From: Salvelinus alpinus
Taxonomy: Eukaryota > Chordata > Actinopteri > Salmoniformes > Salmonidae
NCBI RefSeq assembly: GCF_045679555.1
Contig: NC_092096.1
Coordinates: 24,525,055-24,589,054, forward strand
Reading direction: 5' to 3'
Length of the DNA stretch: 64,000 nucleotides
Both the position numbers and the translations under genes were made by a program. Under the pieces are notes generated by a model. The model saw only the letters and a list, made by a program, of their open reading frames with translations. It did no database searches and was not told the origin of the DNA. The first letter of the stretch is position 1, and every line of letters begins with the position of its first letter. Shown piece by piece: positions 11,001 to 63,735 of this stretch.

Positions 11001-14000
11001 TACGTATTAGGGAAGTACGTAATAGTGAAGTACGTAATAGTGAAGTAGGTAGAAGGGAAGTAGGTAGAAGGGAAGTAGGTAGCAGGGAAGTAGGTAGAAG
11101 GGAAGTAGGTAGTATTGAAGTACGTATTAGGGAAGTACGTATTAGGGAAGTACGTAATAGTGAAGTACGTATTAGAGAAATACGTAATAGGGAAGTACGT
11201 ATTAGGGAAGTACGTATTAGGGAAGTACGTATTAGGGAAGTACGTAATAGGGAAGTACGTAATAGGGAAGTAGGTAGAATGGAAGTAGGTAGAATGGAAG
11301 TAGGTAGAATGGAAGTAGGTAGAATGGAAGTAGGTAGAAGGGAAGTAGGTAGAAGGGAAGTAGGTAGAAGGGAAGTAGGTAGAAGGGAAGTAGGTAGAAG
11401 GGAAGTAGGTAGAAGGGAAGTAGGTAGAAGGGAAGTAGGTAGAAGGGAAGTACGTATTAGGGAAGTACGTATTAGGGAAGTACGTAATAGTGAAGTACGT
11501 AATAGTGAAGTACGTAATAGTGAAGTACGTAATAGTGAAGTACGTAATAGTGAAGTACGTATTAGGGAAGTACGTATTAGGGAAGTACGTAATAGGGAAG
11601 TACGTAATAGCGAAGTACGTAATAGCGAAGTACGTATTAGGGAAGTACGTAATAGTGAAGTACGTGTTAGGGAAGTACGTAATAGTGAAGTACGTATATG
11701 GGAAGTACGTAATAGTGAAGTAGGTATTAGGGAAGTACGTATTAGGGAAGTACGTAATAGTGAAGTACGTATTAGCGAAGTACGTAATAGCGAAGTACGT
11801 ATTAGGGAAGTACGTAATAGGGAAGTACGTAATAGGGAAGTACGTATTAGGGAAGTACGTAATAGTGAAGTACGTATTAAGGAAGTACGTAATAGTGAAG
11901 TACGTAATAGTGAAGTACGTAATAGTGAAGTACGTATTAGGGAAGTACGTATTAGGGAAGTACGTAATAGTGAAGTACGTAATAGTGAAGTACGTATTAG
12001 GGAAGTACGTATTAGGGAAGTACGTATTAGGGAAGTACGTAATAGTGAAGTACGTAGTAGTGAAGTACGTAGTAGTGAAGTACATGTCCCTCTTATAATA
12101 CTATATCATTTTTGTATAATGGAATTTAGATTGAAGGAAGTTGTCGGTTTGTATTTATATGTGAGAGAGTGTGTGTCTATCTGTGTGTGTGTGTCTATCT
12201 TTGTGTGTGTTTGTCTATCTGTGTGTGTGCTTATCTGTGTGCCTGCCTGTTTGTGCATGTGCCTGTGAGAGCACATGTGCGTGGGCTCACTAGCACGCGC
12301 AGCACCTGTGTGAGTAAGAGCGGTCTCCATTTTGCTGTGTTGTCCCAGGGAGAGAGGGGCAGGAGAGGCAGAGGGAAGCCTTGTCAGACAGGACCACCTG
12401 GAAGTCCGGGACAAAGAGGAGGCAGTGTAAGCTACTTCATAGACCAGACACATAACACTCACACACATGTTGTTGTTCATGTATCAATACCTAATGGGAG
12501 TTACTGTCACGAGGCTGGGTGACAGTAATAATTGCTGTGATAATAACCACTGTGTCTTTTCCAGGGAGAGCTCGGAAACGAGGGACTAAAGGGAGAAAAA
12601 GGGGAACCCGGACTCTCTGTAAATACATCTTACTTATTCCCACACACACGTTTGACACCTGCCTGGCCTAAGACATATTTATATTGACAGACAGCTTGGT
12701 TGAAGACAGGGTCTAAGCAACACTCTGCTCTCTCTGTTCTCAGGCCGAGGAGGTGAAGGAGCTGGTCAACCAAGAGGTTGTGAACCAGTGCGGTGAGTGT
12801 TTCTGTGTGCATGCAGGTCTGTGTGGCTGTGTGTCTGTTCTACATTCTAAAACTCCCACTGCTGCGGCATGGCACCCCTGTGTGTTCTGCCATCTGGTGT
12901 GCCCTCTCTGTGGAATGGCCCGTTGAGAGAGGGGACACCGTGACCGACCGGAGTCATTCACAAACACCAGACTCATAAACCATCATGCCACACACCAGAA
13001 CCCAGAGGGCCCTACAACCACAGGGTCAAACGCATCTTTAGTTGACACCTCCACAACTTTGAGGAGAAAGGCATTGTTGCCTTATCCGTAGTCAACATAT
13101 CATATCAAATGTATCATATCAAATTTCCTCCATTAGTTTCCAGGCGAGGTGTGAATGCCTGGCTATGAAATTGTCAATTTAATCCAGTAAAAGCCTCTTT
13201 AAGGCAGGCTCATGTTTATTCAATGGTAGGGGAACACTGACTATTCTGTCTGTGGTTGTTGCAGGGATGGACTTGAAGTTTATGGTGAAGTCCAAGGACC
13301 CGGATGCTGAGAGCATGTTGTTTGAGAGGGATCCAGACGAGCCTATATCCATCTTCACTCGCAGCCTACCTGAGGATGAGATGGGAGAGGAGAAAGAGGA
13401 CAAGAAAAGACTTGAAAAGGAGCTGGTAGGATCAACCACTCCTCCCCCCATCCCCCTGCGAGAGGAGGGGACCCCAGGTGATGACAACCTTACCGGTAAG
13501 TCAAAGTTAGAAGTTTGTGCCGTATCTGGTGTAGCGGTCCAAGCTCCCGACCACATATATGCCCCTGGTCCCGATGCCCCTTGTCCCTAGGTGAGACCCT
13601 CGCTGAGACCAATCTAATATCCTATCCATCTTTTTACTAACCTCCAGAGTTGACCCCAACCCTGAAGCTAGACTCTCCATTCTGAATGCTTTATTACTGT
13701 GAGTAGACGAGGACAAAGACAGAGGGAAAGAGAGAGAGAGGCAGAAAGAAGCAATCAAAGCAGTGTTATCGCGGGTCATTATCCTAGCCAGCCCTAGGCT
13801 ACTGGGCTTCTCATCCCATTTGAATCCCTATTTCAGGTTCCATTGAACCAAAGAGATCGGAAATAATCAAAGGCTCACATTGCCCCTGTCAATGTCAATG
13901 TTACTATTGTTATGTGTAATCCTGCGCCCGGGATCGTGACATCTAGCTTAAGGTATATACATATGACCTGAGTTCCAAAATATTTTATCTTTTCAAATGC

Positions 14001-30159: not shown

Positions 30160-33130
30160 ACACTGTGGTATTTCACCCAATAGATATGAACGTTTATCAA
30201 AATTTGTGGGTCTGTGTAATCTGAGGGAAATATGTGTCTCGAATATGGTCAGACATTTGGCAGGAGGTTAGGAAGTGCAGCTCAGTTTCCACCTCATTTT
30301 GTGGGCAGTGTGCCCATAGCCTATGACGGCCTCTCGCAATAGCAAGGCTATGCTCACTGAGCCTGTACATAGTCTAAGCTTTCCTTAATTTTGGGTCAGT
30401 CACAGTGGTCAGGTATTGGTGTTTTACATTGTACACGGAGGATGCTTTTGTGAATTCTTGGTTGGTGAGTGGACCTCAGACCTCACAACCACAAAGGGAA
30501 ATAACTGATTCAAGTATTTTTAGCCAGATCCTAATTGGGAGGGTGTAGAGGCCCTTCTTGCCTTGTCTCTCAGATTGTTCACAGCTTTGTGGGAGTTACC
30601 TTGTGGTGCTGATGTTTAGGATGAGTTATGTATAATTTTTTGTGTGCTCTACGGCAATAGTGTCTAGATGGTATTTGTGGTCCTTGCAACTGGACCTTCT
30701 TTTGGAACAGCATTATTTTTGTCTTACTGAAATTTACTGTGCAGAAGATCTAGGTGCTGCTGTAGACCCTCCTTGGTTGGGAACAGAAGCACCAGATCGT
30801 CAGCAAACAGTAGACATTTGACTTCAGATTCTAGTAGGGTGAGACCGGGTGCTGCAGACTGTTCTAGTGCCCTCGCCAATTTGTTGATATATATGTTGAA
30901 AAGGGTGGGGCTTAAGCTGCATCCCTGTTTCACCCCACGGCCCTGTGGAAAGAAATGTGTGTGTTTGCCAATTTTAACTGCACACTTGTTGTTTGTGAAC
31001 ATGGATTTTATAATGTCGTATGTTTTTCCCCCAACACCACTTTCGATCAATTTATATAGCAGACCCTGAGTCAAAAGCATGAGAAGACTTTGCCTTTGTT
31101 TTGGTTTGTTTGTTTTCCAATTAGGGTGTGCAGGGTGAATACATGGTCTGTCGTACAGTAATTTGGTAAAAGCCAATTTGACATTTTCTCAGTACATTGT
31201 TATCACTGAGGAAATGTATGAGTTTGCTGTTAATGATAATGCAGAGGATTTTCCCAAGGTTGCTGTTGACGCATATCCCACGGTAGTTATTGGGGTCAAC
31301 TTTGTCTCCACTTTTGTGGATTGGGGTGATCAGTCCTTGGTTACAAATATTGGGGAAGATGCCAGAGCTGAGGATGATGTTAAAGAGTTTATTTATTACC
31401 AATTGGAATTTGTGGTCTGTATATTTTATCATTTCATTTAGGATACCATCAACCCCATAGGCCTTTTTGGGTTGTATATTGTCCTGTAGTTCATTCAATG
31501 TAATTGGATAATCCAGTGGTTTCTGGTAGTCTTTAATAGTTGATTCTAAGATTTGTAATTGATAATGTATATGTTTTTACTGTTTGTTCTTTGTTATAGG
31601 GCCAAAAAGATTGGAGGTGGTTTATCCATACATCACTGTTTTGGATAGATAACTCCTTGTGTTGTTGTTTGTTTAGTGTGTTTCAATTTTCCCATAAGTG
31701 GTTAGATTCTATGGATTCTTCAATTACATTGAGCTGATTTCTGACGTGCTGTTCCTTCTTTTCCCTAGTGTATTTCTGTGTTGTTTTAGTGATTTAACAT
31801 AGTTAAGGCGTAGGCTCAGGTTTTCTGGGTCTCTATGTTTTTGGTTAGATAGGTTTCATCTAACCATTTGTCTTGTTGTTAATTTTCTTAGGATGTCTGC
31901 TTGACATTTTAAGATTTGATAGGGAAGCTAAAAGGTCAAATATACTGTTTACACGGAACCCAAACCGGCTGCGCGCGTGCGCCATTGTGCATACATTTAT
32001 TTTGCCCTCCCACACCAAACGCGATCACGACACGCAGGTTAAAATATCAAAACAAACTCTGAACCAATGACATTAATTTGGGGACAAGTCGAAAAGCATT
32101 CAACATGTGTGGCAATTTAGCTAGTTAGCTTGCCCTTGCTATCTAACGTTAATTTGTCCTATTTAGCTAGCTTGCTGTTGCTAGCTAATTTGACCTTGGA
32201 TATAAACATTGAGTTGTTATTTTAACTGAAATGCACAAGGACCTCTACTCCACCAATTAATCCACACATAAAATGGACAATCGAATCGTTTCTAGTCATC
32301 TTTCCTCTTTCCAGGCTTTTTCATCTTTGAACTTATATGGTGATCGCATCTAAACTTTCATTGTATTACCACGACTACCGGCAAAACAGTTTGTCTTTCA
32401 GTCACCCACGTGGGTATAACCAATGAGGAGATGGCACGTGGGTACCTGCTTCTATAAACCAATGAGGAGATGGGAGAGGCAGGACATGCAGCGCGATCTG
32501 CGTCAAAAATAGGAATGAGTTCTATTTTAGCCCTTGGCGTCGCAGACGCTCGTTAGCGCGCGCAAGCAGTGTGGGTGCAATAATTGAATAACATGGATTT
32601 CTAAATATATTTTGCGACGCTCGCGCACGCGACGTGTCCGGTCTGGTCATAATGTTATGCTTTCTACTGCCAAGTTTACACCATATTTGTGAGGGAATAT
32701 TTTCACCTCCAGGTAGGTGTTTGTCCCCCTGTGTGCTGAGAGTGTCAGGTTCTTGTCCAGTTCTGGCATTTAGGTTGCCACAAACTAGTACATGTTCCTG
32801 GGCCTGAAAATGGTTGATCTCCCACTCTAGGATGGAGAAGCTGTCATCGTTAAAGTATGGGGATTCTATTGGGGGGATATAGGTAGCACACATGAGGACA
32901 TTATTCTCTATTTAGAAAATGTCCTTATTCATTTCTAGCCAGATGTAAAATGTTCCTGTTTTTACTCATTTAATAGAGTGGGTTATGTCTGCTCTATATC
33001 AAATGAGCATACCACCTGAGTCTCTTCCCTGTTTCACACCTGGTAGTTCAGTGGTTGGGAATACCAGCTCTCTGTAACCTAGAGGTCAACCAATGGGTCT
33101 TCTCCTCTATACCATGTTTCTTTTAGGATG
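30160..33130 (-). mobile_element. Non-LTR retrotransposon (LINE), degenerate
   Basis: Minus-strand remnants in order are an endonuclease piece (about 32893-32660: HVLVCGNLNARTG), RT N-terminal part (31498-31121: GVDGILNEMIKYT, LITPIHKSGDKVDPNNYRGI) and RT core (31080-30724: GRGVKQGCSLSPTLFNIYIN, then the FADDLVLL active-site box). There are frameshifts and an in-frame gap between the two RT pieces. A repeat at about 31935-32655 is nested inside. The last 3' part is at 30270-30500. A related 3' fragment is at 62340-63350. The clade was not resolved by eye. Confidence 0.8.
31935..32655. mobile_element. Repeat nested within the LINE, probable DNA element
   Basis: About 720 bp separate LINE RT from LINE endonuclease sequence. 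The ends are GC-rich and roughly inverted: AACCCAAACCGGCTGCGCGC on the left, and GCGCACGCGACGTGTCCGGT on the right. Short TTAGCTAGCT repeats lie inside. No coding remnant is seen. Confidence 0.5.
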
Positions 33131-35431: not shown

Positions 35432-38400
35432 ATGATAAAGAAATTTGACAAGAAGGACGAAGAGTCTGGTAAGATAAATTAAGTGTAAAGAAATCAATAT
35501 AGCTACTTGGAAATAGGTAACGTTTTTTTGCCAACTAGTTACCGCTGACGTTAGCTAGCTAGTAGCTAGCATTCTAGCTAGGTAACGTTAACTACACTAA
35601 GTTTGTATTCGTTTGGTGGATATTTTTTTGTTGTCAAATAGATGTCTGTCTTTGTTGATCACACTAGCTATATGTGTCTATTTGTTGAGCAGATATGTAA
35701 ATTGCCTGCTAGAGACGCTTTAAGCTAGCTATCTGTCAAATTAGCTTGCAAACTAGCTAACGTTAGTTGGTTATGAAGACTAAGTTAACTGTGCCTAGTA
35801 AAAAATACACTTCTTTGGCTGTGCCGTGTAAAATTTGATAAGAGATTCAATATCTAGTTGGCTACATGTGTCTATCGATGTACCGTATACTGGTAGTTAG
35901 CTACCTAATTTAGTTCATTTAAAAACTGTCAATGTCGTCTTGCTCACTCAAGTTTGTTGACCATAACTAGACGAGGTTTAAGCTACTACTTAAGTTATCT
36001 AGTTACGAAATCCACATTCAACACGATATAGTAATGACGCATAGTAAGCGAACTACCTAGTTAGTCTTTATAGTTCCAATATAATCCAATTTTGTCTTAA
36101 TGTGGCTATTTTCTCTTCGCTGCAACAATTAGGAAGTGGCTCTAACCCTTTCCAGCATCTTGAAAAGAGTGCAGTGTTGCAAGAGGCTCGTATTTTCAAC
36201 GAGACTCCGATCAACCCCAGAAGATGTCTCCACATCCTCACCAAGATCATTTACCTACTCAACCAGGTGAGAAACAAACCCATAACATGCAAACCAATTG
36301 TTTTGCATGTAAACCCTTTGATATTAACAGAAGATGTTTCTATGTTCTGTCTAGGGGGAGCACTTTGGAACTATGGAGGCGACCGAGGCCTTCTTCGCAA
36401 TGACCAGGCTCTTCCAGTCCAATGATGTGAGAATAAGTTATTGCTTTGGGTTTAATTAAATTATTGCTGATCATACAAGTAAACAACATTATCGACAGAA
36501 CATACCGCAACATAAACAATACATGATGACATAAACTCACAAACTAACCTCAAACAAGTCCAACTAGTGCCATTAAATGAGTATTCAATGAGTAGTGTTG
36601 TAATTGACGTATTGTAGAGATGTGGACCGTAGTGTTTATGTATAGCATTATCTGTTTTTGAAAATGTCTCTCTGTATTCCTTCAGCAAACCCTGAGAAGG
36701 ATGTGCTACCTTACCATCAAGGAGATGGCCAACATCTCTGAGGATGTCATCATTGTCACCAGCAGCCTGACCAAGGACATGACTGGCAAGGAGGATGTGT
36801 ACAGAGGACCTGCCATCAGAGCTCTCTGCAGGATCACGGATGTCAGTCTGTCTCTCTGTCTCTCTCACTCTCTCTCCCTCCCTGTCTTTGTGTCTTTCCC
36901 TCTCGGTCTGTCTGTTTCTCTCCCTGATTTTTATTAGTCTGTGTTTTCTTTTTGTTTCCATTCTGATAGCTGAACAGTATTATTTAATTTTTTACATCCA
37001 GCTTACATTGTGTTATTGTAATTGGACTAAACCTATGCTTTTTGGTCAATAAACTCAAGCCCTACTTTGTAACTCTGTCCCACAGACCACCATGCTGCAG
37101 GCCATTGAGAGATACATGAAACAGGCCATCGTTGACAAAGTGCCCAGTGTGTCCAGCTCTGCCCTGGTCTCCTCTCTGGTAAGAAATTAGCCACACTGCG
37201 CCTGGATGTCTCAAGGTGACTGTGTCATTTGCAAGTACTCCCATTGCTTTGTGGGTAATGTATTTTGTGGTTTCTGTGTGTCTGTAGCACATGGTTAAGA
37301 TGAGCTACGACGTGGTGAAGCGCTGGGTGAACGAGGCACAGGAGGCAGCTTCCAGTGACAACATCATGGTCCAGGTGGGTTACACACACTCTGATAACCT
37401 GTTCATTAGGCACCAAGCAGAAGAAAGAACCTATGTTTTACTGTTATCTTCACTCATTCAATATGAAATACACTGAAAAAGGTTTTGATATGTTGTTCCC
37501 TAATGAACACAACCCGGGTAAGTTGAAAGAGAATCACTTCCACTGTGACCTCTCTGTGATTCCCCCCCAGTACCACGCCCTGGGCCTGCTGTACCACCTG
37601 AGGAAGAATGACCGACTGGCCGTATCCAAGATGCTCAACAAGTTCACCAAGTCTGGCCTCAAGTCCCCCTTTGCCTACTGCATGCTCATCCGCATCGCCA
37701 GCAAGCTGTTGGAGGAGACCGAGGCAGGGTAGGTAGCACCATGGAAGCACTGCCACGTAGACCGAGGCAGGGTAGATGGCACCGTGGAAGCACTGCCACG
37801 CAGAACGAGGCAGGGTAGATGGCACTGTGGAAGCACTGCCACGCAGACCGAGGCAGGGTAGATGGCACTGTGGAAGCACTGCCACGCAGACCGAGGCAGG
37901 GTAGATGGCACTGTGGAAGCACTGCCACGCAGACCGAGGCAGGGTAGATGGCACTGTGGAAGCACTGCCACGCAGACCGAGGCAGGGTAGATGGCACCAT
38001 GGAAGCACTGTCACGCAGACCGAGGCAGGGTAGGTGGCACCGTGGAAGCACTGTCATGTAGACCGAGGCAGGGTAGGTGGCACCGTGGAAGCACTGCCAC
38101 GCAGACCGAGGCAGGGTAGGGGGCACCATGGAAGCACTGTCATGCGGACCGAGGCAGGGTAGGTGGCACCGTGGAAGCACTGTCACGCGGACCGAGGCAG
38201 GGTAGGTGGCACCGTGGAAGCACTGTCACGTAGACCGAGGCAGGGTAGGTGGCACCGTGGAAGCACTGTCACGTGGACCGAGGCAGGGTCGGTGGCACCG
38301 TGGAAGCACTGTCACGCGGACCGAGGCAGGGTAGGTGGCACCGTGGAAGCACTGTCACGCGGACCGAGGCAGGGTAGGTGGCACCGTGGAAGCACTGTCA

Positions 38401-41400
38401 CGTAGACCGAGGCAGGGTAGGTGGCACCGTGGAAGCACTGTCACGTAGACCGAGGCAGGGTAGGTGGCACCATGGAAACACTGTCACGCAGACCGAGGCA
38501 GGGTAGGTGGCACCATGGAAGCACTGTCACGCGGACCGAGGCAGGGTCGGTGGCACCGTGGAAGCACTGTCACGCGGACCGAGGCAGGGTAGGTGGCACC
38601 GTGGAAGCACTGTCACGCGGACCGAGGCAGGGTCGGTGGCACCGTGGAAGCACTGTCACGTGGACCGAGGCAGGGTCGGTGGCACCGTGGAAGCACTGTC
38701 ACGCGGACCGAGGCAGGGTAGGTGGCACCGTGGAAGCACTGTCACGCGGACCGAGGCAGGGTAGGTGGCACCGTGGAAGCACTGTCACGCGGACCGAGGC
38801 AGGGTAGGTGGCACCGTGGAAGCACTGTCACGTGGACCGAGGCAGGGTCGGTGGCACCGTGGAAGCACTGTCACGCGGACCGAGGCAGGGTAGGTGGCAC
38901 CGTGGAAGCACTGTCACGCGGACCGAGGCAGGGTAGGTGGCACCGTGGAAGCACTGTCACGTAGACCGAGGCAGGGTAGGTGGCACCATGGAAGCACTGT
39001 CACGTAGACCGAGGCAGGGTAGGTGGCACCATGGAAACACTGTCACGCAGACCGAGGCAGGGTAGGTGGCACCATGGAAGCACTGTCACGCGGACCGAGG
39101 CAGGGTAGGTGGCACCATGGAAGCACTGTCACGCGGACCGAGGCAGGGTAGGTGGCACCATGGAAGCACTGTCACGCAGACCGAGGCAGGGTAGGTGGCA
39201 CCGTGGAAGCACTGTCACGCGGACCGAGGCAGGGTAGGTGGCACCATGGAAGCACTGTCACGCGGACCGAGGCAGGGTAGGTGGCACCATGGAAGCACTG
39301 TCACGTAGACTCAGGCAGGGTAGATAAACACTGTCATGGACTGTTTACTTGAATGTGTTTTCTAGTCTGTCTACAGTGGGTTGGTGTCTAGTATTCCCTT
39401 TCATTGATATGTATAGTTTTTATTCAACATCAGGGGGAAGTGATCTGTGTAGTGACCTCATGCATTTTTTAATTTTAATGATTTAACCTTTTATTTAACT
39501 AGGAAAGTCAGTTAAGAACAAATTTCTTATTTACAATGACAGCCTACCAAAAGGCAAAATGCCTCCTGCGGGGACGAGGGCCTGGGATTAAAACAAATAA
39601 AATAAATACAATATAAATATAGGACAAAACACACATCAAGACAAGAGACAACACTACATAAAGAGAGACCTAAGACAGCAACATAGCAAGGCAGCAACAC
39701 ATGACAACACAGCATGGTACAGAAGCAACATAACAACATGGTAGCAGCACAAAACATGGTACAAACATTATTGGGCTCAGACAACAGCCCAAAGGGCAAG
39801 AAGGTAGAGACAACAATATATCACACAAAGCAGCCATAACTGTCAAAGTCCATACACATGGCAGCGGAGGACACAGAATGCACAGTGTCAAATTTTACTT
39901 TATAAACATATTTGGTATATTTTTGTCGTCTTGTGTGTGTGTGGCATTGTAATACAGATGGTTGGCTATTTTCTGTTTGCAGACATGACAGCCCCCTGTT
40001 TGACTTCATTGAGAGCTGTCTGAGGAACAAGCATGAGATGGTGGTGTATGAGGCAGCCTCGGCCATAGTCCACATGCCCAACTGTACTGCCAGAGAGCTG
40101 GCCCCCGCTGTCTCTGGTGAGTCTCTGTAATTACAGCCATTTTGGTAAATACACCTTACTTTCTAGTGTCCACATGTGGGTACCTACCTGAAAAAATTGA
40201 TATTAGAGGTTGTAGTATCCTATGAACCTAGTACCTCTGGTTTTACCACTTGACTGTCTGTTATTGTGTTTCTCTCCAGTCCTGCAGCTGTTCTGCAGCT
40301 CTCCCAAAGCAGCCCTGAGATACGCAGCTGTCAGGACCCTCAACAAGGTGGGTCTCCACTTCTCCATGCTCTTCATTACTCTGAGTTACCTGTGTTTTAC
40401 ATTGAGTATACTGTATTTACAACCGCATTCCGCTGTTTGTCCACCAGGTGGCGATGAAGCACCCGTCGGCCGTGACTGCGTGCAACCTGGACCTGGAGAA
40501 CCTGATCACTGACTCGAACCGCAGCATCGCCACGCTGGCCATCACCACACTGCTGAAGACAGGCAGCGAGAGCAGTGTGGACCGCCTCATGAAACAGATC
40601 TCCTCCTTCGTCTCTGAGATCTCTGACGAGTTCAAGGTGAGGAGGAGGATGAGTTTTAGTTTAATGTGTAGTTTCTCCTCAATGATATGCTCTTGTTTTT
40701 CCCCTCTACAATACTCTAGTTTAATAATTTAGGCATTTAAATAGTTGGATAATCTATTAGAATACACTCAATATGTAATCCCCCCCAAAAAATATATTTG
40801 TCGGAAGTTAAACTATATTTTAAACAAACCACAACTACTTTAATCTATTTCCAAATGGGATATTATTTCACCAAAGTGAAGTCCTATCCTCTGACTGCTG
40901 AGTGTGTTTCAGGTGGTGGTTGTGCAGGCCATCAGTGCCCTGTGTCAGAAGTATCCCAGAAAGCACAGCGTCATGATGAACTTCCTGTCCAACATGCTCC
41001 GAGACGACGTGAGTGGAACACCCTGACTGAGCAGCCTAATGTCTTTTGTCACTGATGTGTAGGACAAGAGAACCTATTGAAGGACATTTATGTTTCACTG
41101 ACATGAAACCATCTGGACTACAGACAAACAGGAGCTCTTTGGCCAACTCTGGCACATTTACATTGATATGACCACTCAGTTTTCTGATTTTATGTACCAC
41201 TGTCCCTGAAACATAAATTCTTTCAATGATGCCTCTCCTCTCAGGGTGGCTTTGAGTACAAGCGGGCCATCGTGGACTGCATCATCAGCATCATCGAGGA
41301 GAACCCAGAGAGCAAGGAGACGGGGCTGGCCCACCTGTGTGAGTTCATCGAGGACTGTGAGCACACGGTGCTGGCCACCAAGATCCTCCACCTGCTGGGC

Positions 41401-42086
41401 AAGGAGGGCCCGCGCACGCCCTCGCCATCCAAGTACATCCGCTTCATCTTCAACCGCGTGGTGCTGGAGAGCGAGGCCGTCAGAGCCGGTGAGAAATGGG
41501 GGAGTGTGTGTTTTAACCCCTGCTGGCCTGGAGTTGTCAATAGCATGTGTGTTTGAGAGACAGAGTTGTGTGTGTCTGGGTGCAACATGAATGGTAGTTC
41601 TGATAAGTCTGTTGGGATTGGCTCCACTAACTGGTGACATCACCAACCATGAAAGGATCAATTCATTAATATGAAGACAAATGGTATTTGCGCCTGGCTT
41701 TTCAACAGAAACTCACTGTTAATCATAAAGGGTTTAAACTAATGTGAGTTACCACGTTGTTGTAGTTTATACACATTGTGTATTAACTAAGCTCCTTTCT
41801 CGCCCCTGTAGCTGCGGTCAGTGCTCTGGCTAAGTTTGGAGCCCAGAATGATGACCTTCTCCCCAGTGTGTTAGTCCTGATGCAGAGGTAGAGACAGCCT
41901 TTCACTGGCTCCCGGTCATAATGATCCATTCCCTGTGTGGTTACCACTCTAAAGTGTGTTGACGTATGGTGTGTGTTACTAGGTGTATGATGGACAGTGA
42001 CGACGAGGTGAGGGACAGAGCCACCTTCTACATGAACGTGCTGCAGCAGAAGCAGAAAGCCCTCAACGCTGCCTACATTTTCAACG
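35432..42086 (+). CDS. copg2: copg2 trunk exons (1-14)
   Basis: These encode the adaptin-type HEAT solenoid that packs against zeta-COP and binds Arf1-GTP (family knowledge). Landmarks: [20 protein letters not shown] (exon 4), [20 protein letters not shown] (exon 6), [20 protein letters not shown] (exon 8), [20 protein letters not shown] (exon 11) and the 244-nt exon 12 with [20 protein letters not shown]. Exon 7 ends at 37728 in the middle of a Gly codon (GG|A), where the intronic 43-bp array begins. Confidence 0.95.
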
Positions 42087-45000
42087 GTGAGAACACACAC
42101 TGCGCTCCTAGTCTCCTAACTTGAGAACACTAGAGTGTGTGGACATATCTGGTCCAATTCAGGAAGTAAGGTTGTGTTCTTTGATTGTGGTCCCTCAAAC
42201 TCTCTCAGTGAATCGACATGTGCAGAGAATTAATTTTTCTCCATCGAACATTTATTCATTTTGAGGTATTTCCTTTATTGAACCGTCTGTCTCCTCCTGT
42301 CAGGTCTGTCGGTGTCTGTCCCGGGTCTCGAGAAGTCCCTCCACCAGTACACCCTGGAGCCCACAGAGAAGCCCTTCGATATGAAGTCGGTTCCCCTGGC
42401 CAACACACCCATCACAGAGCAGAAGACCGAATTCGCTCCTGTGGCCACTAGCAAGCTTCCAGAGAAACCAGGCCCGACGCGCCAAGACATCTACCAGGGT
42501 ACAGTCACCTTACTTGAAACTATCATGGCAAGACATGGCGTTATCACAAGGAAAAAAAAGAATTTCTGAAGTAAAAGGACCCACTCACATTTATTTTCCA
42601 AGCTATAGCACATAGTATTTTGCATGGAAACACGTTCTTAATGAACCATAGAATTCAGTCTGCTAAGAGTTATTAGCCATGGAAAACCAAATATCATAGT
42701 AGCAGTAGTTGTGATACTAGTATTGTGGCATCAACAACTTCAGAGCAGCAAAAACTTGAGGGCAGCTATAATATTGTGGTAGTTAGGACTAGGGGTGGAT
42801 TCAGCTATAATATTGTAGTAGTTAGGACTAGGGGTGGATTCAGCTATAATATTGTAGTAGTTAGGACTAGGGGTGGATTCAGCTATAATATTGAAGTATC
42901 TAGGACTAGGGGTGGATTCAGCCTATAATATTGTAGTAGTTAGGACTAGGGGTGGATTCAGCTATAATATTGTAGTAGTTAGGACTAGGGGTGGATTCAG
43001 CTATAATATTGTGGTAGTTAGGACTAGGTGTGGATTCAGCTATAATATTGAAGTATTTAGGACTAGGGGTGGATTCAGCTATAATATTGTAGTAGTTAGG
43101 ACTAGGGGTGGATTCAGCTATAATATTGTGGTAGTTAGGACTAGGGGTGGATTCAGCTATAATATTGTGGTAGTTAGGACTAGGTGTGGATTCAGCTATA
43201 ATATTGTAGTAGTTAGGACTAGGGGTGGATTCAGCTATAATATTGTAGTAGTTAGGACTAGGGGTGGATTCAGCTATAATATTGTGGTAGTTAGGACTAG
43301 GGGTGGATTCAGCTATAATATTGTAGTAGTTAGGACTAGGGGTGGATTCAGCTATAATATTGTAGTAGTTAGGACTAGGGGTGGATTCAGCTATAATATT
43401 GTAGTAGTTAGGACTAGGGGTGGATTCAGCTATAATATTGTGGTAGTTAGGACTAGGGGTGGATTCAGCTATAATATTGTAGTAGTTAGGACTAGGGGTG
43501 GATTCAGCTATAATATTGTAGTAGTTAGGACTAGGTGTGGATTCAGCTATAATATTGTAGTAGTTAGGACTAGGTGTGGATTCAGCTATAATATTGTAGT
43601 AGTTAGGACTAGGGGTGGATTCAGCTATAATATTGTGGTAGTTAGGACTAGGTGTGGATTCAGCTATAATATTGTAGTAGTTAGGACTAGGTGTGGATTC
43701 AGCTATAATATTGAAGTATTTAGGACTAGTGGTGGATTTGGAACTGGGCCTCTCCTCTAATCTCTCCTCCTCCTGTCAACAGAACAACTGGCAGCCATTC
43801 CAGAATTCCAGGGCCTGGGTTCTCTCTTCAAGACGTCGGAGGCGGTGCAGCTGACCGAGGCGGAGACTGAGTATGTGGTGCGCTGCGTCAAGCACACCTT
43901 CGCCAGACACATGGTGTTCCAGTTCGACTGCACCAACACGCTCAACGACCAGCTCCTGCAGAAGGTAGGGCTACACTGGTGACTGGTGCGCTGTAGGAAG
44001 TTCACGGCTCCTAGAATGCACAGCGATTGTCAATGTGTGGAGGTTTAGTTGGGTGCAAAATGGCTGCAGTGGCATCACCCCAAATCCCTCCTTACACTGT
44101 AGATATCTTTGAGCAGTTTGAAAAGCATAATCCTATTCAATTAATTTTATAAAGCTTTATTGTCCATTCAACTGACAGTAGACAGAAACGTGGCTTTGGT
44201 GCCTCACATTTAAAATCTACAACACTGACATTAAGACACAGGACTACATGTATAGAAATGTATTAAGTGGAAGTCCACTTGTTGTCCTTCAGGTTATGGT
44301 TCAGATGGAGCCGTCGGAGGCCTACGAGGTTCTCCACTACGTCCCTGCTGCTAACCTGCCCTACAGCCAGCCTGGCTCCTGCTACAGCCTGGTCAGACTG
44401 CCTGAAGATGACCCCACCGCAGGTTACTTTTATTAAACCTGTGTGTGACTGTGTGTGAGGGAGAGAGAGAAATAAGCCGTTTTCATGAGGGCAACTCAGA
44501 AGTGCTTAGTGTGACGTCAGTGTTGTAACTCTGTTAATACCCTTCTCAGAACTAAAGAATCTGAATGGTTTTCCATTGAGAGAGAAAAGCACTTATCTGC
44601 TGGCCTTCTTCAAACACTAAGGACACTTACTTACATCACGTAGCCTAGTCATGTAATGTCTGCACTGTCGATGTCATATTAAATGTGTTGTCTGCTCTCC
44701 AGTGTCCTGTACGTTCAGCTGTACTCTGAAGTACCTGGTGAAAGACTGCGACCCCAACACAGGAGAGCCCGATGACGACGGCTACGATGACGAATATGTG
44801 GTATGAGCTCAATATAAAACCTATTTTAAAAATTTAACTCATTTATCCCAAAAATAATTATATCTTGTTTACCGTCATTTGCCTAAATTCTCTATTCTCC
44901 CCTTTTTCTACCTTCTCTGCTCTCCTCCCCCCCCCCCCCCCCCCCCGTGTGTGTGTCAGCTGGAAGACTTGGAGGTGACCGTAGCAGACCACATCCAGAA

Positions 45001-48000
45001 GGTGTTGAAGCCTAACTTTGCCGCAGCCTGGGACGAGGTGGGAGACGACTTTGAGAAGGAGGAGACGTTCGCCCTGGCCTCTGTCAGAACGTTAGACGGT
45101 AATTATTTCAATCGGGATCTTTGGATTTATCACCACAACATTGAAACAGTGTACATTCTGTGAGCTGTTTTAGAGCAGTGGTTCCCATACATAGAAATAT
45201 CATCATTAACAGTTGTATTGATTTTCTCCATACTTTTCTCTCTCCATTGTGACTCACTTAAAGCCTTTTGAGCTTGTTTGTGAGGCATCAAATGGGCTAT
45301 TTCTGACCATAATTCAGTCTTTAAATAGAACCCAATGGAACTGGCCTCGTGAAAGTGTTTGAACTATGTATTTAACCCAGGTCTGGAGTTGGAACTGGCC
45401 TCGTCAAAGTGTTTGAACTATGTATTTAACCCAGGTCTGGAGTTGGAACTGGCCTCGTCAAAGTATTTGAACTATGTATTTAACCCAGGTCTGGAGTTGG
45501 AACTGGCCTCGTGAAAGTGTTTGAACTATGTATTTAACCCAGGTCTGGAGTTGGAACTGGCCTCGTCAAAGTGTTTGAACTATGTATTTAACCCAGGTCT
45601 GGAGTTGGAACTGGCCTCGTGAAAGTGTTTGAACTATGTATTTAACCCAGGTCTGGAGTTGGAACTGGCCTCGTGAAAGTGTTTGAACTATGTATTTAAC
45701 CCAGGTCTGGAGTTGGAACTGGCCTCGTCAAAGTGTTTGAACTATGTATTTAACCCAGGTCTGGAGTTGGAACTGGCCTCGTCAAAGTGTTTGAACTATG
45801 TATTTAACCCAGGTCTGGAGTTGGAACTGGCCTCGTCAAAGTGTTTGAACTATGTATTTAACCCAGGTCTGGAGTTGGAACTGGCCTCGTCAAAGTGTTT
45901 GAACTATGTATTTAACCCAGGTCTGGAGTTGGAACTGGCCTCGTGAAAGTGTTTGAACTATGTATTTAACCCAGGTCTGGAGTTGGAACTGGCCTCGTCA
46001 AAGTGTTTGAACTATGTATTTAACCCAGGTCTGGAGTTGGAACTGGCCTCGTCAAAGTGTTTGAACTATGTATTTAACCCAGGTCTGGAGTTGGAACTGA
46101 CTTAACGTTAAATGATCTGGTTAATTATCATCATCTTATGACACTGCTACATACTTAAAGCAGAGTGAGTAATATGTGTATTTGGACACAGGCACACTGA
46201 AGGCAGGTTGTATCTAGGGTGCTACAGTGTGTCAAGTAAAATCTGCAAGTTGTCTCTGTCGGGGCTGGTGGTAACGTTTCTGTCGGGGCTGGTGGTAACG
46301 TTTCTGTCGGGGCTGGTGGTAACGTTTCTGTCGGGGCTGGTGGTAACGTTTCTGTCGGGGCTGGTGGTAACGTTTCTGTCGGGGCTGGTGGTAACGTTTC
46401 TGTCGGGGCTGGTGGTAACGTTTCTGTAGGGGCTGGTGGTAACGTTTCTGTAGGGGCTGGTGGTAACGTTTCTGTAGGGGCTGGTGGTAACGTTTCTGTC
46501 GGGGCTGGTGGTAACGTTTCTGTCGGGGCTGGTGGTAACGTTTCTGTAGGGGCTGGTGGTAACGTTTCTGTCGGGGCTGGTGGTAACGTTTCTGTCGGGG
46601 CTGGTGGTAACGTTTCTGTCGGGGCTGGTGGTAACGTTTCTGTCGGGGCTGGTGGTAACGTCTCTGGCCATTCAAAATCCCATGGTACTTATTGTAAGAG
46701 TAGGGGTGTTCACCCCGGTGTCAACGCTAAATTCCTAACCTGGACTCCTTCCATCATGGCCACCTAATCATCCCCCTCATTCCTAGTTGGCATATATCAC
46801 ACCTCTCCTCGTACATCACTCCTCACCTCTCCTCGTACATCACTCCTCACCTCTCCTCGTACATCACTCCTCACCTCTCCTCGTACATCACTCCTCACCT
46901 CTCCTCGTACATCACTCCTCACCTCTCCTCGTACATCACTCCTCACCTCTCCTCGTACATCACTCCTCACCTCTCCTCGTACATCACTCCTCACCTCTCC
47001 TCGTACATCACTCCTCACCTCTCCGCCTGTTAGCTGTTGTGTGGTGAACGTTCTGGCACAACAACGGTTGCTGTGCATCACCCAGGTAGAGCTGCAACAC
47101 TGACGCTGGATGAGTTTCCCTTTACTATATAAAGTCCTTAGACTACCTCAGTTGGTAGAAAAGTTTCCCTTTACTATATAAAGTCCTTAGACTACCTCAG
47201 TTGGTAGAAAAGTTTCCCTTTACTATATAAAGTCCTTAGACTACCTCAGTTGGTAGAAAAGTTTCCCTTTACTATATAAAGTCCTTAGACTACCTCAGTT
47301 GGTAGAAAAGTTTCCCTTTACTATATAAAGTCCTTAGACTACCTCAGTTGGTAGAAAAGTTTCCCTTTACTATATAAAGTCCTTAGACTACCTCAGTTGG
47401 TAGAAAAGTTTCCCTTTACTATATAAAGTCCTTAGACTACCTCAGTTGGTAGAAAAGCGCTGTGTAAATCCAATCAATCATTATTATTTGTATACAATCA
47501 CTTATGTGTTATGTGGGGAATATTTCCTGAATTAAAATCACTTGGAGCTGATTTCCTGGAGTGTGTATACTTGGAGCCAAGTACCACCACCTGCGGGCCA
47601 AATTCAGCCCGCGGTCCGCCAGATGGGGGAAGCCTCCTGTTGAGACTGTTGGTCACATCTCCCTGTTCCCTGTCGTCTCTGTAGAGGCTGTTGGTAACAT
47701 CATCAGTTTCCTGGGCATGCAGCCCTGCGAGCGTTCAGACAAGGTCCCAGAAAACAAGAACTCACACATCCTCTTCCTTGCCGGTGGGTGTTTTATTTAT
47801 TTATTGTATCTTGATTTTAATTAATTATTGTTTTGCTTTGTGAATTGTATTGTAGGCTCATTCTGTACCCTTTATTGCCGTAAATATGTTAAGTTCAGTT
47901 TCTAACCTTGACACGGCAGCTTGTTCAACTTCCTGTCACTAGTGTGATGGAAGCAAGCCCCCCATGGTATGAATGACAGTTTCTGTCCCTCCCCTTCCTC

Positions 48001-55100: not shown

Positions 55101-58100
55101 TATTTTTTGGGAAGCATATTTGACATATAAAGCTTGTATGTGAAAACTACGTATGAAGCCGAAACCACAGAGACACGCCGTCAGAATTTGCGTGCGAGAG
55201 TAGAGTGCGTCAATTCACATACACAGCATCGCATATGCCAATTTAATGGTCATTACATAACAAACAGTTGTATTTGTTATGTTCGCTATGTGCCCTTGTG
55301 AATTAATGTGTTCCTTTTGATTAACCTTATGTCCTACAGGAGCCACCGTACATGCCTAATCTAAACAGTTATGTTAGCTCACGAATGTGAGGAGTTGTTG
55401 CTCATACACCCGAGCAGATTTTAAAGAATTTATCTTGTCTCATTCGTTCTACACAACAGTATTCTCTCTTGAAATCAGAGTTCCTCGAGTTTCCCAGCCC
55501 TAGCCTGCCTAAGCTAAGTTATATTCCTGTGATGGAAATCAACACAGGTAGGCATAACGTTAGTTTTCAAATATGCATTATTTGACACGGGCAGTTAAAT
55601 GTAACACTATGGGTGTGTTCATAAATTCACTCTGGCTATCTACTTCGATTTCAGAGCGCTCTCGTCTGAGTGTACCAGAGCGCAGAATAATTGATGCATT
55701 TACAAACCCTCAACACCTATTGAATATGGCCGGTGCCAGTAAATCTCGGCAAAAAATGCGTAATTAAATTGTTGCCAGCATCACAGTCACCAATGCTCTG
55801 GATAACATGAAAACAGCCAAACCAGCTCTGCAAGGGCGAGTAAAATGGTCAGAGTGAGGTTCTCATTTTTGTCTGGAAGTAGCTAGCCAACGGCTTGGGT
55901 GCTTGACTGCCGTTGTGAGGTCAGAACGCTCGGATCAACCCTACTCCTCGGCCAGAGCGTCCAGTGTGCTCTGAATTTACGAACGCCCAGAGCGCACTGA
56001 GTGAATTTACGAACACACCGTAAATAGACACTTTGGGTGTGTTCGTAAATTCCATCTGGAGTGGCAGAGTGCATTCATAAACACAGGGTGTTGTCAGATT
56101 ATAATAAACAAACATAACTTGTAACTTTAATACTGAGGTATGACTGTGCATGTAAAGGTAATGTATTTGACTGCAGATAATTCAAATTACACAATGAAAA
56201 AAGATATCAATGACTGAGCCCCTTGTTCTAACACTGTTATAGCTTGAGCTCATGTGTCTCTTCTGTGTCCATATTAAAGATTCAAGAGATGTGTACAGTA
56301 GGAGGAAACGTATACAGTATGTGAGAACACAGGCATGTACCCTTTAGAGAACACCATGTAGTTGGTGAGACGGGTCAGCACCGGAGAGAGGAAGCTGGAG
56401 TCCTTGAGGAGCTGTGTGGGAGACAGCATGGCGATGATCCAACAGAACAACAATAAGCAGTCATAATGCTCAGAGAACAGTCAGATAATCCAGAATATCC
56501 ACAGTAAATGTTGACTAACCTTCTGAAGGAATCTGGGATGGTGTGTTTCTGGGAATATGCCTGTTCAAGAAAAAGTTGTTTACTTACATTAAATATTTCA
56601 TAACCAAACATGGCAAGTTAACAGTAAGACAAAGGCTATCAAAGCAATGTGTCACTTTGTCATGAAGTTGTTGACCAGTAATCTACTTTGTACACATGAA
56701 GTGGTCCTTGCTATGATCCTTGGGACGTTTAAAATGGTTAGTGTAGGGGTTTAGGGGAACAATGAAAAAATGCAGTGGAACTGGCTTCGAGGTCCAGAGT
56801 TGAGTTTGAGGGGGTAAGAGTTTAGGGTAGGGACATCCCAAGGATTCCGGATAGCACTAACCCATAGGAAACTATTGTGGTATAGTGTGTATGACTCGGA
56901 GTAGAGGAATTTGTAAGAACAGAAAATCACTGATTTGAATGAGGGGTTAAACCAATGGTGAGCAACTCTGTGCAGGATTTAGTGGAAAAAAATATCGAAT
57001 TGGGCTGCCTGTGTAAATGCAGTCTTAGTAAAAAAATTAATTATAATAATCGGACAAGACAGGTGAGTTTACACCAGCTGCCCATCGTTGTCTAATCAGG
57101 CTCTGATTGGTTACAGGTTGTCCGCTACAAAACATAAAAATACACAAGTCTTTTCTCCTCACTTCACCAGCACTGTTCATTGGGTATCATGGCTGCTAGT
57201 ACTGGCTCAGGGTAAGATGGTGGCAAGAGCAATGTTACTTTCATCACATTGAGTATGTTGTTTAACGGTCAACCTCTGTCTGTAGGTGCCTCCTTGCTTT
57301 GCTGTTCATTGCTATCCTTATCAACAAGGTAAGAGCAACATTAAAGTACTGTTTGCTTGAATTGTTTTTGGAAGTCTTATCTGAAGTTAACATTTAGTTT
57401 GTTCCTTCCCCAGTTGATAGGACCATCTTTCTCCACCCTCTTTGAGCGCGACACTGGTCGTCTGAGTGCGACACTGGTCGTCTATGAGCGCGACACTGGT
57501 CGTCTATGAGCGCGACACTGGTCGTCTATGAGCGCGACACTGGTCGTCTGAGTGCGACACTGGTCGTCTATGAGCGCGACACTGGTCGTCTATGAGCGCG
57601 ACACTGGTCGTCTATGAGCGCGACACTGGCCGTCTATGAGCGCGACACTGGCCGTCTATGAGCGCGACACTGGCCGTCTATGAGCGCGACACTGGCCGTC
57701 TATGAGCGCGACACTGGCCGTCTATGAGCGCGACACTGGCCGTCTATGAGCGCGACACTGGCCGTCTATGAGCGCGACACTGGCCGTCTATGAGCGCGAC
57801 ACTGGTCGTCTATGAGCGCGACACTGGTCGTCTATGAGCGCGACACTGGTCGTCTATGAGCGCGACACTGGTCGTCTATGAGCGCGACACTGGTCGTCTA
57901 TGAGCGCGACACTGGTCGTCTATGAGCGCGACACTGGTCGCCCGGTGAGGTGTCTTTCCAATTCCAGAGCCCGGTGAGGTGTCTTTCCAATTCCAGAGCC
58001 CGGTGAGGTGCCTTTCCAATTCCAGAGCCCGGTGAGGTGCCTTTCCAATTCCAGAGCCCGGTGAGGTGCCTTTCCAATTCCAGAGCCCGGTGAGGTGCCT

Positions 58101-61100
58101 TTCCAATTCCAGAGCCCGGTGAGGTGTCTTTCCAATTCCAGAGCCCGGTGAGGTGCCTTTCCAATTCCAGAGCCCGGTGAGTTGCCTTTCCAATTCCAGA
58201 GCCCGGTGAGGTGCCTTTCCAATTCCAGAGCCCGGTGAGGTGCCTTTCCAATTCCAGAGCCCGGTGAGGTGCCTTTCCAATTCCAGAGCCCGGTGAGGTG
58301 CCTTTCCAATTCCAGAGCCCGGTGAGGTGCCTTTCCAATTCCAGAGCCCGGTGAGGTGCCTTTCCAATTCCAGAGCCCGTTGAGGTGCCTTTCCAATTCC
58401 AGAGCCCGTTGAGGTGCCTTTCCAATTCCAGAGCCCGTTGAGGTGCCTTTCCAATTCCAGAGCCCGGTGAGGTGCCTTTCCAATTCCAGAGCCCGGTGAG
58501 GTGCCTTTCCAATTCCAGAGCCCGGTGAGGTGCCTTTCCAATTCCAGAGCCCGGTGAGGTGCCTTTCCAATTCCAGAGCCCGGTGAGGTGCCTTTCCAAT
58601 TCCAGAGCCCGGTGAGGTGCCTTTCCAATTCCAGAGCCCGGTGAGGTGTCTTTCCAATTCCAGAGCCCGGTGAGGTGTCTTTCCAATTCCAGAGCCCGGT
58701 GAGGTGTCTTTCCAATTCCAGAGCCCGGTGAGGTGCCTTTCCAGTTCCAGAGCCCGGTGAGGTGCCTTTCCAATTCCAGAGCCCGTTGAGGTGCCTTTCC
58801 AGTTCCAGAGCCCGTTGAGGTGCCTTTCCAGTTCCAGAGCCCGGTGAGGTGCCTTTCCAATTCCAGAGCCCGGTGAGGTGCCTTTCCAATTCCAGAGCCC
58901 GGTGAGGTGCCTTTCCAATTCCAGAGCCCGGTGAGGTGCCTTTCCAATTCCAGAGCCCGGTGAGGTGCCTTTCCAATTCCAGAGCCCGGTGAGGTGCCTT
59001 TCCAATTCCAGAGCCCGGTGAGGTGCCTTTCCAATTCCAGAGCCCGGTGAGGTGCCTTTCCAATTCCAGAGCCCGGTGAGGTGCCTTTCCAATTCCAGAG
59101 CCCGGTGAGGTGCCTTTCCAATTCCAGAGCCCGGTGAGGTGCCTTTCCAATTCCAGAGCCCGGTGAGGTGCCTTTCCAATTCCAGAGCCCGGTGAGGTGC
59201 CTTTCCAATTCCAGAGCCCGGTGAGGTGCCTTTCCAATTCCAGAGCCCGTTGAGGTGCCTTTCCAATTCCAGAGCCCGTTGAGGTGCCTTTCCAATTCCA
59301 GAGCCCGTTGAGGTGCCTTTCCAATTCCAGAGCCCGGTGAGGTGCCTTTCCAATTCCAGAGCCCGGTGAGGTGCCTTTCCAATTCCAGAGCCCGGTGAGG
59401 TGCCTTTCCAATTCCAGAGCCCGGTGAGGTGCCTTTCCAATTCCAGAGCCCGGTGAGGTGCCTTTCCAATTCCAGAGCCCGGTGAGGTGCCTTTCCAATT
59501 CCAGAGCCCGGTGAGGTGCCTTTCCAGTTCCAGAGCCCGGTGAGGTGCCTTTCCAGTTCCAGAGCCCGGTGAGGTGCCTTTCCAGTTCCAGAGCCCGTTG
59601 AGGTGCCTTTCCAGTTCCAGAGCCCGGTGAGGTGCCTTTCCAGTTCCAGAGCCCGGTGAGGTGCCTTTCCAGTTCCAGAGCCCGGTGAGGTGTCTTTCCA
59701 ATTCCAGAGCCCGGTGAGGTGTCTTTCCAATTCCAGAGCCCGGTGAGGTGTCTTTCCAATTCCAGAGCCCGGTGAGGTGTCTTTCCAATTCCAGAGCCCG
59801 GTGAGGTGTCTTTCCAGTTCCAGAGCCCGGTGAGGTGTCTTTCCAGTTCCAGAGCCCGGTGAGGTGTCTTTCCAGTTCCAGAGCCCGGTGAGGTGTCTTT
59901 CCAGTTCCAGAGCCCGGTGAGGTGTCTTTCCAGTTCCAGAGCCCGGTGAGGTGTCTTTCCAGTTCCAGAGCCCGGTGAGGTGTCTTTCCAGTTCCAGAGC
60001 CCGGTGAGGTGTCTTTCCAGTTCCAGAGCCCGGTGAGGTGTCTTTCCAGTTCCAGAGCCCGGTGAGGTGTCTTTCCAGTTCCAGAGCCCGGTGAGGTGTC
60101 TTTCCAGTTCCAGAGCCCGGTGAGGTGTCTTTCCAGTTCCAGAGCCCGGTGAGGTGTCTTTCCAGTTCCAGAGCCCGGTGAGGTGTCTTTCCAGTTCCAG
60201 AGCCCGGTGAGGTGTCTTTCCAGTTCCAGAGCCCGGTGAGGTGTCTTTCCAGTTCCAGAGCCCGGTGAGGTGTCTTTCCAGTTCCAGAGCCTGGGGAGGT
60301 GTCTTTCCAGGGTGGAGAAGACCCTTTACTGCACCATTGGTGCCCCGGCTCTATCAAGATTCCTTGGCATGAGCAGAACAACCAGGAACCAGCAGTCAGG
60401 TTCTGATATCTTCTGGTTTATGTTCATGATTTCTTAGTATTGACGCAACTTCATGAATAATCAGTTTTCTTGTTGGCTACAACCATGGTTCTTCCCAGGC
60501 TAAGGGTGGTGTCTGGTTGGAGTCTTCCCAGGGTGTATTTGTCTGGGTACCATCGGTATGGTCACTACATGGCTACTAGGTAAGGTTGTTACATCTTTCT
60601 GATGTGTTGCAGCTTTAACACTTATTTTTCTATTCCTGGCTAGCAGCTCTGTATTAACCTGGATCCTGATATAATTTGGCTATGATGCTCTACAACCTTG
60701 AATAAATGACTTTAAAATGTTTTTGTCTGGCTTGCTTTGTACATTTTACTTAAGTATGGTTTATGTTACCTGTAGCCAATCAGGAAAAGGCCTGAAACTG
60801 TACTCTACCTCCATTGGACAAACAGAGGCTGTTGATGGTCAAGTGTCCAGTCCTGTTGTGGTCACTCCTGTGAGATACAAAGATGGGGTCAGTTGGGAAC
60901 AGCTCTATAGCATCCACCATATTTCACCTTCCTGTGTTGGGTAATGGAAGGGAAAACACTAGACTATTGAGATGCAGCCCTATTATGTCAGAGTGCTTTC
61001 AGTGATGATGGTTCCTCCAGGATTGGCTTCCAAGCCCAACCTTGACCATTAGTATTGGAAATGCAAACTGACACACGCTCAGTGTTTAGGGGCAACTTCA

Positions 61101-63664: not shown

Positions 63665-63735
63665 CTTTCCTTTGGTAGGAGGGCCGGTCTCGCATTCCGC
63701 ACTCTGGCAGACAACACTGGGGTCACGTCACGACA
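63507..63735 (-). promoter_or_regulatory. mest: mest start region with overlapping upstream ATG
   Basis: The main start (MREWW) is at 63664. An upstream ATG at 63695-63693 opens a frame out of phase with mest that overlaps its start; on the unspliced strand it runs to about 63507. A possible acceptor, TGACCCCAG|TG, at 63717 suggests the 5' UTR is spliced from an exon farther upstream. GTGACGTGACC just beyond it (read on the minus strand) is a CRE-like element. Confidence 0.45.

What the first reader, a model, noticed from the sequence alone, without database searches (positions are those of the whole stretch)
37717..39325. A minisatellite that multiplies a 5' splice site about 37 times
The last 12 bases of copg2 exon 7 plus its GTAGGT donor form part of a 43-bp unit that continues through the intron for 1.6 kb. 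The intron therefore begins with a tandem series of near-identical exon ends and donors. Only the first can give the normal protein: any downstream donor keeps the in-phase TAG right after GAGGCAGGG, so the product would be truncated or degraded. The array could act as a sponge for U1 snRNP or create variable use of donors, and its length should vary between individuals. It probably arose by slippage across the exon-intron boundary.
Basis: partly seen in the sequence, partly recalled or inferred. Interest (0 to 1): 0.75.

Follow-up and report, generated by a model that had tools for sequence, protein, structure and literature searches.

The report
Minisatellite repeating an exon's splice site
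In a fish genome, probably of the salmon family, a short tandem repeat has copied the end of a gene's exon, splice signal included, dozens of times into the next intron; the same arrangement turned up in three other genes of this genome, giving natural test cases for how cells choose the right splice site.

Summary
The array is real: 43 bp x 37.4 copies, 37716-39323. It starts 13 nt inside a copg2 coding exon and includes its GTAGGT donor; gamma-COP fixes the junction. A 24-base piece of the unit has no match elsewhere in the 2.37-Gb genome with up to 2 mismatches. Any downstream donor keeps the in-frame TAG at 37730. The copies are not equal: of the 36 decoys in units 2-37, 24 match the true donor and 12 are weaker; the six nearest are all +5A. 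Donor columns are no better conserved than the rest (3/9 vs 9/34 variable, p=0.69), so a selected U1 sponge is unsupported. Most likely it is a neutral slippage product whose first donor wins by position. The kind is known: human F7 intron 7 and ABCA7 intron 18. What I add: of 25 other donor-bearing arrays whose flanks I read, four (three genes: a T-type calcium channel at two loci, pcyt2, il10) begin inside a confirmed coding exon. The pcyt2 and il10 paralogs have a single donor there. Donor use in RNA was not testable.

The parts
37571..37728 (+). copg2 coding exon (158 nt); its last 13 bases are the first part of repeat unit 1
   Evidence: gamma-COP alignment 5a1u 194-290; exon length
37729..37734 (+). 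authentic 5' splice site AGG|GTAGGT; best U1 pairing energy of the array (-11.3 versus -10.8 for the other GTAGGT copies)
   Evidence: U1 5' end and donor matrix recalled
37730..37732 (+). in-frame TAG, upstream of every decoy donor
   Evidence: 7 of 37 decoys printed; the stop precedes all
37716..39323 (+). 43-bp minisatellite, 37.4 copies, each with a copy of the 13-nt exon end and a donor-like GT
   Evidence: TRF, unit table
37759..38016 (+). units 2-7: all six donors are GTAGAT (+5A, weaker)
38017..39306 (+). units 8-37: 24 donors GTAGGT, 5 GTCGGT, 1 GTAGGG; the first full-strength decoy, at 38030, would give a 459-nt exon
39307..39336 (+). degenerate last unit (10-nt deletion, GTAGAT)
   Evidence: local alignment
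39983..40116 (+). next copg2 coding exon (134 nt); acceptor AG at 39981-39982

Best explanation
A minisatellite arose by replication slippage or unequal exchange across the exon end and the start of the intron in copg2 and then expanded into the intron. The repeated donors are passengers. Splicing still uses the first, authentic donor because position decides: it is made first and defines the exon (oriented scanning, exon definition); in copg2 the six nearest decoys are also weak, and full-strength decoys begin only 301 nt downstream. Rare use of a decoy would leave the in-frame TAG in the mRNA, which would be degraded. Shown: the anatomy, the strength classes, the stop, that the unit is confined to this locus, and recurrence of the arrangement in the genome. 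Inferred: first-donor use, decay of the mRNA, slippage.
For: Array and exon overlap. Donor scores by a recalled matrix: 7.67 for GTAGGT, 6.47 GTAGGG, 3.86 GTAGAT, 3.64 GTCGGT. Donor columns vary like the others: 3 of 9 versus 9 of 34, p=0.69, as for passengers. [quoted passage not shown] ABCA7: the GT of unit 1 is the donor; two frameshift isoforms at 14 and 2%, the second read by me as single-unit retention (PMC5954066, passages and Discussion). [quoted passage not shown] Same arrangement in three further genes, with single-donor paralogs for pcyt2 and il10. Minisatellites fill 9.7% of 200 kb sampled (23 arrays) and 15% of the window (11 arrays), so such overlaps are to be expected here.
Against: No RNA data were in reach, so first-donor use is not shown in this fish. 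No array-free copg2 could be compared: no second copy was found by protein or DNA (the first look of that tool is loose), and no other species was available. The weak block next to the exon (a run of six placed at random: 1 in 31, post hoc) could hint at selection. The three other genes show no such block, but they were found by patterns that demand intact donors.
Confidence: 0.75

Rival explanations
1. Array length tunes expression: longer arrays give more decoy use (degraded mRNA) or more skipping of the next exon, as ABCA7 VNTR length raises exon 19 skipping.
For: ABCA7: exon 19 skipping rises strongly with length and expression falls (PMC5954066). In copg2 both routes would break the product: the next exon is 134 nt, not a multiple of 3, and the in-frame TAG is at 37730.
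Against: In ABCA7 the VNTR-unit retention did not change with length. No RNA or length data for copg2. No conservation of the donor copies.
Confidence: 0.2
2. The array is a selected sponge for U1 snRNP or a platform for splicing factors.
For: 25 of 38 sites pair with the U1 5' end as well as, or nearly as well as, the true donor.
Against: Donor columns are not more conserved than the rest (3/9 vs 9/34); 12 of 36 decoys are weakened; one intron is not expected to titrate abundant U1 (general knowledge).
Confidence: 0.03
3. Assembly artefact that inflated or collapsed a short repeat.
For: Tandem arrays are often mis-sized in assemblies (general knowledge); the copy number rests on one assembly.
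Against: 19 distinct unit types, neighbours more alike than distant units; exon-end arrays at four more loci of the assembly; single-donor paralogs in the same assembly.
Confidence: 0.02

Closest known systems
Human F7 (factor VII) intron 7 37-bp VNTR
   Same: The authentic donor lies in the first of a series of near-identical repeats. In patients +5G>A in that first donor leads to exon skipping and use of a downstream cryptic donor; the same +5A is what units 2-7 carry here (review PMC6627357, passages; the original, PLoS Genet 2006 e138, was not held).
   Different: Other gene, unit and copy number; the first-donor rule rests on experiment there and is untested here.
Human ABCA7 intron 18 25-bp VNTR
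   Same: The array abuts the exon and the first GT of the array is the authentic donor; use of the next unit's donor keeps one unit and shifts the frame (PMC5954066, passages and Discussion).
   Different: There the repeat is described as starting with the GT; here 13 exon bases belong to the unit. A length effect on the next exon is known only there.
Exon-edge repeats in rainbow trout irak3 introns
   Same: Salmonid gene with coding exon pieces repeated in neighbouring introns (PMC6763605, passages).
   Different: There 15-17 nt of an exon start, four copies, at the acceptor side, and repeats of a whole exon.
Internal tandem repeats of human genes in segmental duplications
   Same: Minisatellites that may lie at exon-intron boundaries and alter splicing (PMC2812944, passages).
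   Different: About half lie in coding exons; boundary cases are linked to novel introns; on average 30-bp units repeated 4 times.

Membership tests
Exon-boundary VNTR carrying the 5' splice site (F7/ABCA7 kind) | Authentic 5' splice site lies in the first unit of a minisatellite | tested here: met
Exon-boundary VNTR carrying the 5' splice site (F7/ABCA7 kind) | Intronic units carry further donor-like sites | tested here: met
   38 GT-bearing sites in all, 25 of them GTAGGT
Exon-boundary VNTR carrying the 5' splice site (F7/ABCA7 kind) | Copy number varies between individuals | not testable with these tools
   one assembly; by analogy two near-identical T-type channel loci differ, 13 vs 6 donors
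Exon-boundary VNTR carrying the 5' splice site (F7/ABCA7 kind) | Only, or mainly, the most upstream donor is used | not testable with these tools
   no RNA data
Exon-boundary VNTR carrying the 5' splice site (F7/ABCA7 kind) | Use of a downstream unit disrupts the reading frame or brings a stop | tested here: met
   TAG at 37730 precedes every decoy (7 of 37 decoys printed)
Selected U1 sponge | Donor positions kept more than other unit positions | tested here: not met
   3/9 vs 9/34 variable columns, p=0.69
Recursive splice sites (acceptor next to donor) | Pyrimidine-rich acceptor before the donor in each unit | tested here: not met
   0.50 pyrimidine before units 2 and 11 versus 0.80 and 0.70 at the two real acceptors (only these unit positions and unit 1 were printed)

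The most novel reading that the evidence does not exclude
Salmonid genomes hold a whole class of genes, perhaps on the order of a hundred, in which a minisatellite has captured an exon end with its donor; these arrays keep many equal donors at 26-53 nt spacing and their copy number sets how much of the transcript is spliced productively, making tandem-repeat length a widespread quantitative switch for gene output after the salmonid genome duplication.
Probability: 0.15. Interest if true: 0.8.

Novelty: new member of a known kind. Interest (0 to 1): 0.55.

Why it matters
How the spliceosome picks one 5' splice site among equal neighbours has, as far as I recall, rested on engineered constructs and a few human loci. 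This genome offers a natural series: 26, 43, 47 and 53-nt spacing; 6 to 38 sites; equal donors (pcyt2: 26 CAG|GTGAGT sites, with the 42 nt before the first two identical) or partly weakened ones (copg2); and single-donor paralogs as controls (pcyt2, il10). Counting junctions in existing RNA-seq would test position against strength directly.

Tried and rejected
U1 sponge: unsupported. RNA fold hiding the decoys: predicted accessibility is lower at all 37 other sites than at donor 1 (at most 0.016 versus 0.038), but folding is no stronger than in shuffled sequence (z=-0.32 for four units; z=0.47 at the exon end), so I do not rest on it. Selection for the weak block of units 2-7: 1 in 31, post hoc, absent in the other genes; left open. 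Higher-order structure: the longest runs of unit types that recur are of three. Rfam: no match at gathering scores in 36000-46000. Genome-wide excess of tandem donors: not shown; matches versus reversed-pattern control were 1059 vs 1725 for CAGGTAAGT, 5493 vs 1950 for CAGGTGAGT, 1360 vs 2066 for AAGGTRAGT. A second copg2: not found; a search with a gamma-1 peptide did not complete. Short exon peptides: the T-type channel, pcyt2 and L047 peptides had no Pfam match at E 0.1; pcyt2 joined to the next exon reached 20.3 bits against a Pfam cut-off of 21; so the channel and pcyt2 rest on PDB matches. The il10 exon alone had no PDB match at E 1; joined to the next exon it matched IL-10. Possible exons at L038, L051 and L062 were put to no database in a form that was answered. 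Papers seen as passages but not leaned on: PMC2423196, PMC11830802, PMC4039745. Ten paper listings: no title or abstract start in them reports this array (copg2 was a term only); the library lacks most subscription journals.

Full report
What is there. The window holds a gamma-COP gene on the + strand (PDB 5a1u, E 5.3e-258 over a string of window frames). A 43-bp minisatellite of 37.4 copies, 95% match, spans 37716-39323. Its first 13 bases are the last 13 bases of a 158-nt coding exon (37571-37728), and the donor GTAGGT at 37729 lies in unit 1. The exon joined to the one at 39983 aligns to gamma-COP with no gap (E 1.4e-49), which fixes both splice sites. After unit 37 comes a degenerate unit (39307-39336). 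A 24-mer of the unit with up to 2 mismatches is found 36 times in the 2.37-Gb genome, all in this array, control 0.

The donors are not all alike. Of 38 sites 25 are GTAGGT (the real one included), 7 GTAGAT, 5 GTCGGT, 1 GTAGGG. The six units next to the real donor are all GTAGAT, so the nearest full-strength decoy is at 38030, 301 nt away, and would make a 459-nt exon. The TAG at 37730 lies in frame before every decoy (7 of 37 printed). Twelve of 43 unit columns vary: 3 of the 9 donor columns and 9 of the other 34 (p=0.69). Decoys thus decay like the rest of the unit. Neighbouring units differ by 1.7 bases on average, all pairs by 2.8, as local duplication would give.

Background. In 200 kb of the same genome (20 stretches of 10 kb, one on each of contigs C1-C10 and C12-C21) I found 23 arrays with period 10 or more, 5 or more copies, 200 bp or more and 85% or more matches, 19,413 bp in all, 9.7%. 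By the same filter the window has 11 arrays, 9,572 bp, 15%. In a genome this rich in minisatellites some will cover exon ends.

The same thing elsewhere in the genome. I searched for three copies of a strong donor at short spacing. Each list shows only its first places (100 by my count, about 100 in the others), all on contigs C1-C3. They hold 25 different arrays, and I fetched the upstream flank of each. By eye, in 7 (L035, L046, L048, L054, L058, L059, L061) the array runs beyond the flank, so its start was not seen. Of the 18 visible starts 4 lie inside a confirmed coding exon; only those with a suggestive frame were put to a database, so 4 is a lower bound. (1, 2) A T-type calcium channel exon (31 aa, PDB 7wli alpha-1I, E 2.1e-11, ending exactly at the donor) at two near-identical loci on C2, one on each strand: 26-bp unit with 16 exon bases, 13 and 6 CAG|GTAAGT donors (downstream flank 694 identical, 9 different, 36 gapped positions; upstream 251 of 251 after N letters were removed). 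Whether the two loci are a real inverted duplication or an assembly duplicate is open. (3) pcyt2 (27 aa, PDB 3elb, E 3.7e-10; next exon at C1:22916803-22916880): 47-bp unit, 26.8 copies, 41-42 exon bases plus the donor, 26 CAG|GTGAGT sites. (4) il10 (two exons joined: Pfam IL10 E 7.9e-9; PDB 1lk3 E 6.4e-7): 53-bp unit, 7.1 copies, 7 AAG|GTGAGT sites. Four more (L038, L047, L051, L062) are possible but unproven.

Paralogs. The second pcyt2 has the same exon (ending [28 protein letters not shown]) with a single donor GTATGT and no array at it. The second il10 has EANDELETSLLDEGILHHLK and a single donor, though its intron holds other minisatellites. So these donor arrays are specific to one paralog; that the paralogs date from the salmonid genome duplication is inference. 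Read in the exon's frame, all six intronic il10 units say Asp-Glu-Gly, as does the single-donor paralog, while the functional exon beside the array says Asp-Lys-Glu. The array seems to keep an earlier state of the exon, which supports copying from exon to intron.

How it works. Best supported: slippage across the boundary, neutral expansion, first donor used by position. [quoted passage not shown] the original was not held). In ABCA7 the first GT of a 25-bp VNTR is the donor; two frameshift isoforms stand at 14 and 2%, the second, as I read it, being single-unit retention, unaffected by length, while exon 19 skipping rises with length (PMC5954066, passages and Discussion). [quoted passage not shown] copg2, with its first full-strength decoy at 301 nt, fits. 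That paper's masking of decoys by G-triplets concerns about the first 50 nt of introns, so here it would bear on unit 2 only. In pcyt2, il10 and the channel gene equal donors lie 26-53 nt away; if the first is used there too, neither distance nor strength protects it. RNA data would decide.

Scale. If about 300 of 7,912 pattern matches were representative, 4 loci in 25 arrays would mean about a hundred such loci. This is a rough guess: lists run by contig, two of the four loci are near-identical, and the patterns cover few donor types and would not have caught copg2. Matches are not in consistent excess over reversed-pattern controls, so I claim recurrence, not enrichment.

Verdict. The copg2 array is a new member of a known kind; its recurrence in one genome, with single-donor paralogs as controls, is what raises the interest.

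Noticed in passing
L043 (C2:116579000-116581770) and L040/L044 (C2:116426950-116428900): T-type calcium channel exon end repeated as a 26-bp unit CTGCTCCTTCCTRCAG|GTAAGTTGAC, 13 vs 6 donors at two near-identical loci. Each unit looks like a recursive splice site (pyrimidine-rich CAG next to a perfect donor), so splicing into the array could be self-correcting.
   Followed up: partly
L053/L055 (C1:22915088-22916348): pcyt2 exon end plus donor repeated 26.8 times at 47 bp; 41-42 of 47 bases of the unit are coding-exon sequence; the paralog on C2 (L065/L066) has one donor and no array at it.
   Followed up: yes
L060/L063 (C2:1298640-1299015): il10 exon end and donor repeated 7 times at 53 bp; intronic units keep an Asp-Glu-Gly reading that the single-donor paralog (L068) shares and the functional exon beside the array lacks.
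   Followed up: partly
window 42763-43738: Another copg2 intron minisatellite (39 bp x 25) ends 44 bases before the exon at 43782.
   Followed up: no
window 10505-12083, 45336-47457, 57439-60309: Many further minisatellites (15 to 54-bp units, up to 106 copies); 15% of the window by the filter.
   Followed up: partly
window 30724-31188 (-): Reverse-transcriptase fragment (Pfam RVT_1, E 2.3e-16).
   Followed up: no
window 61908-63727 (-): Reading frames that look like mest on the opposite strand (name recalled; frame 63491-63727 had no Pfam match).
   Followed up: no
window, left part (about the first 13 kb): Collagen-like Gly-X-Y frames in the raw translation; no search was made.
   Followed up: no
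L067 (C12:60752600-60755200): The second il10 locus has a 31-bp array of 57 copies, 100% match, close before the next exon.
   Followed up: no
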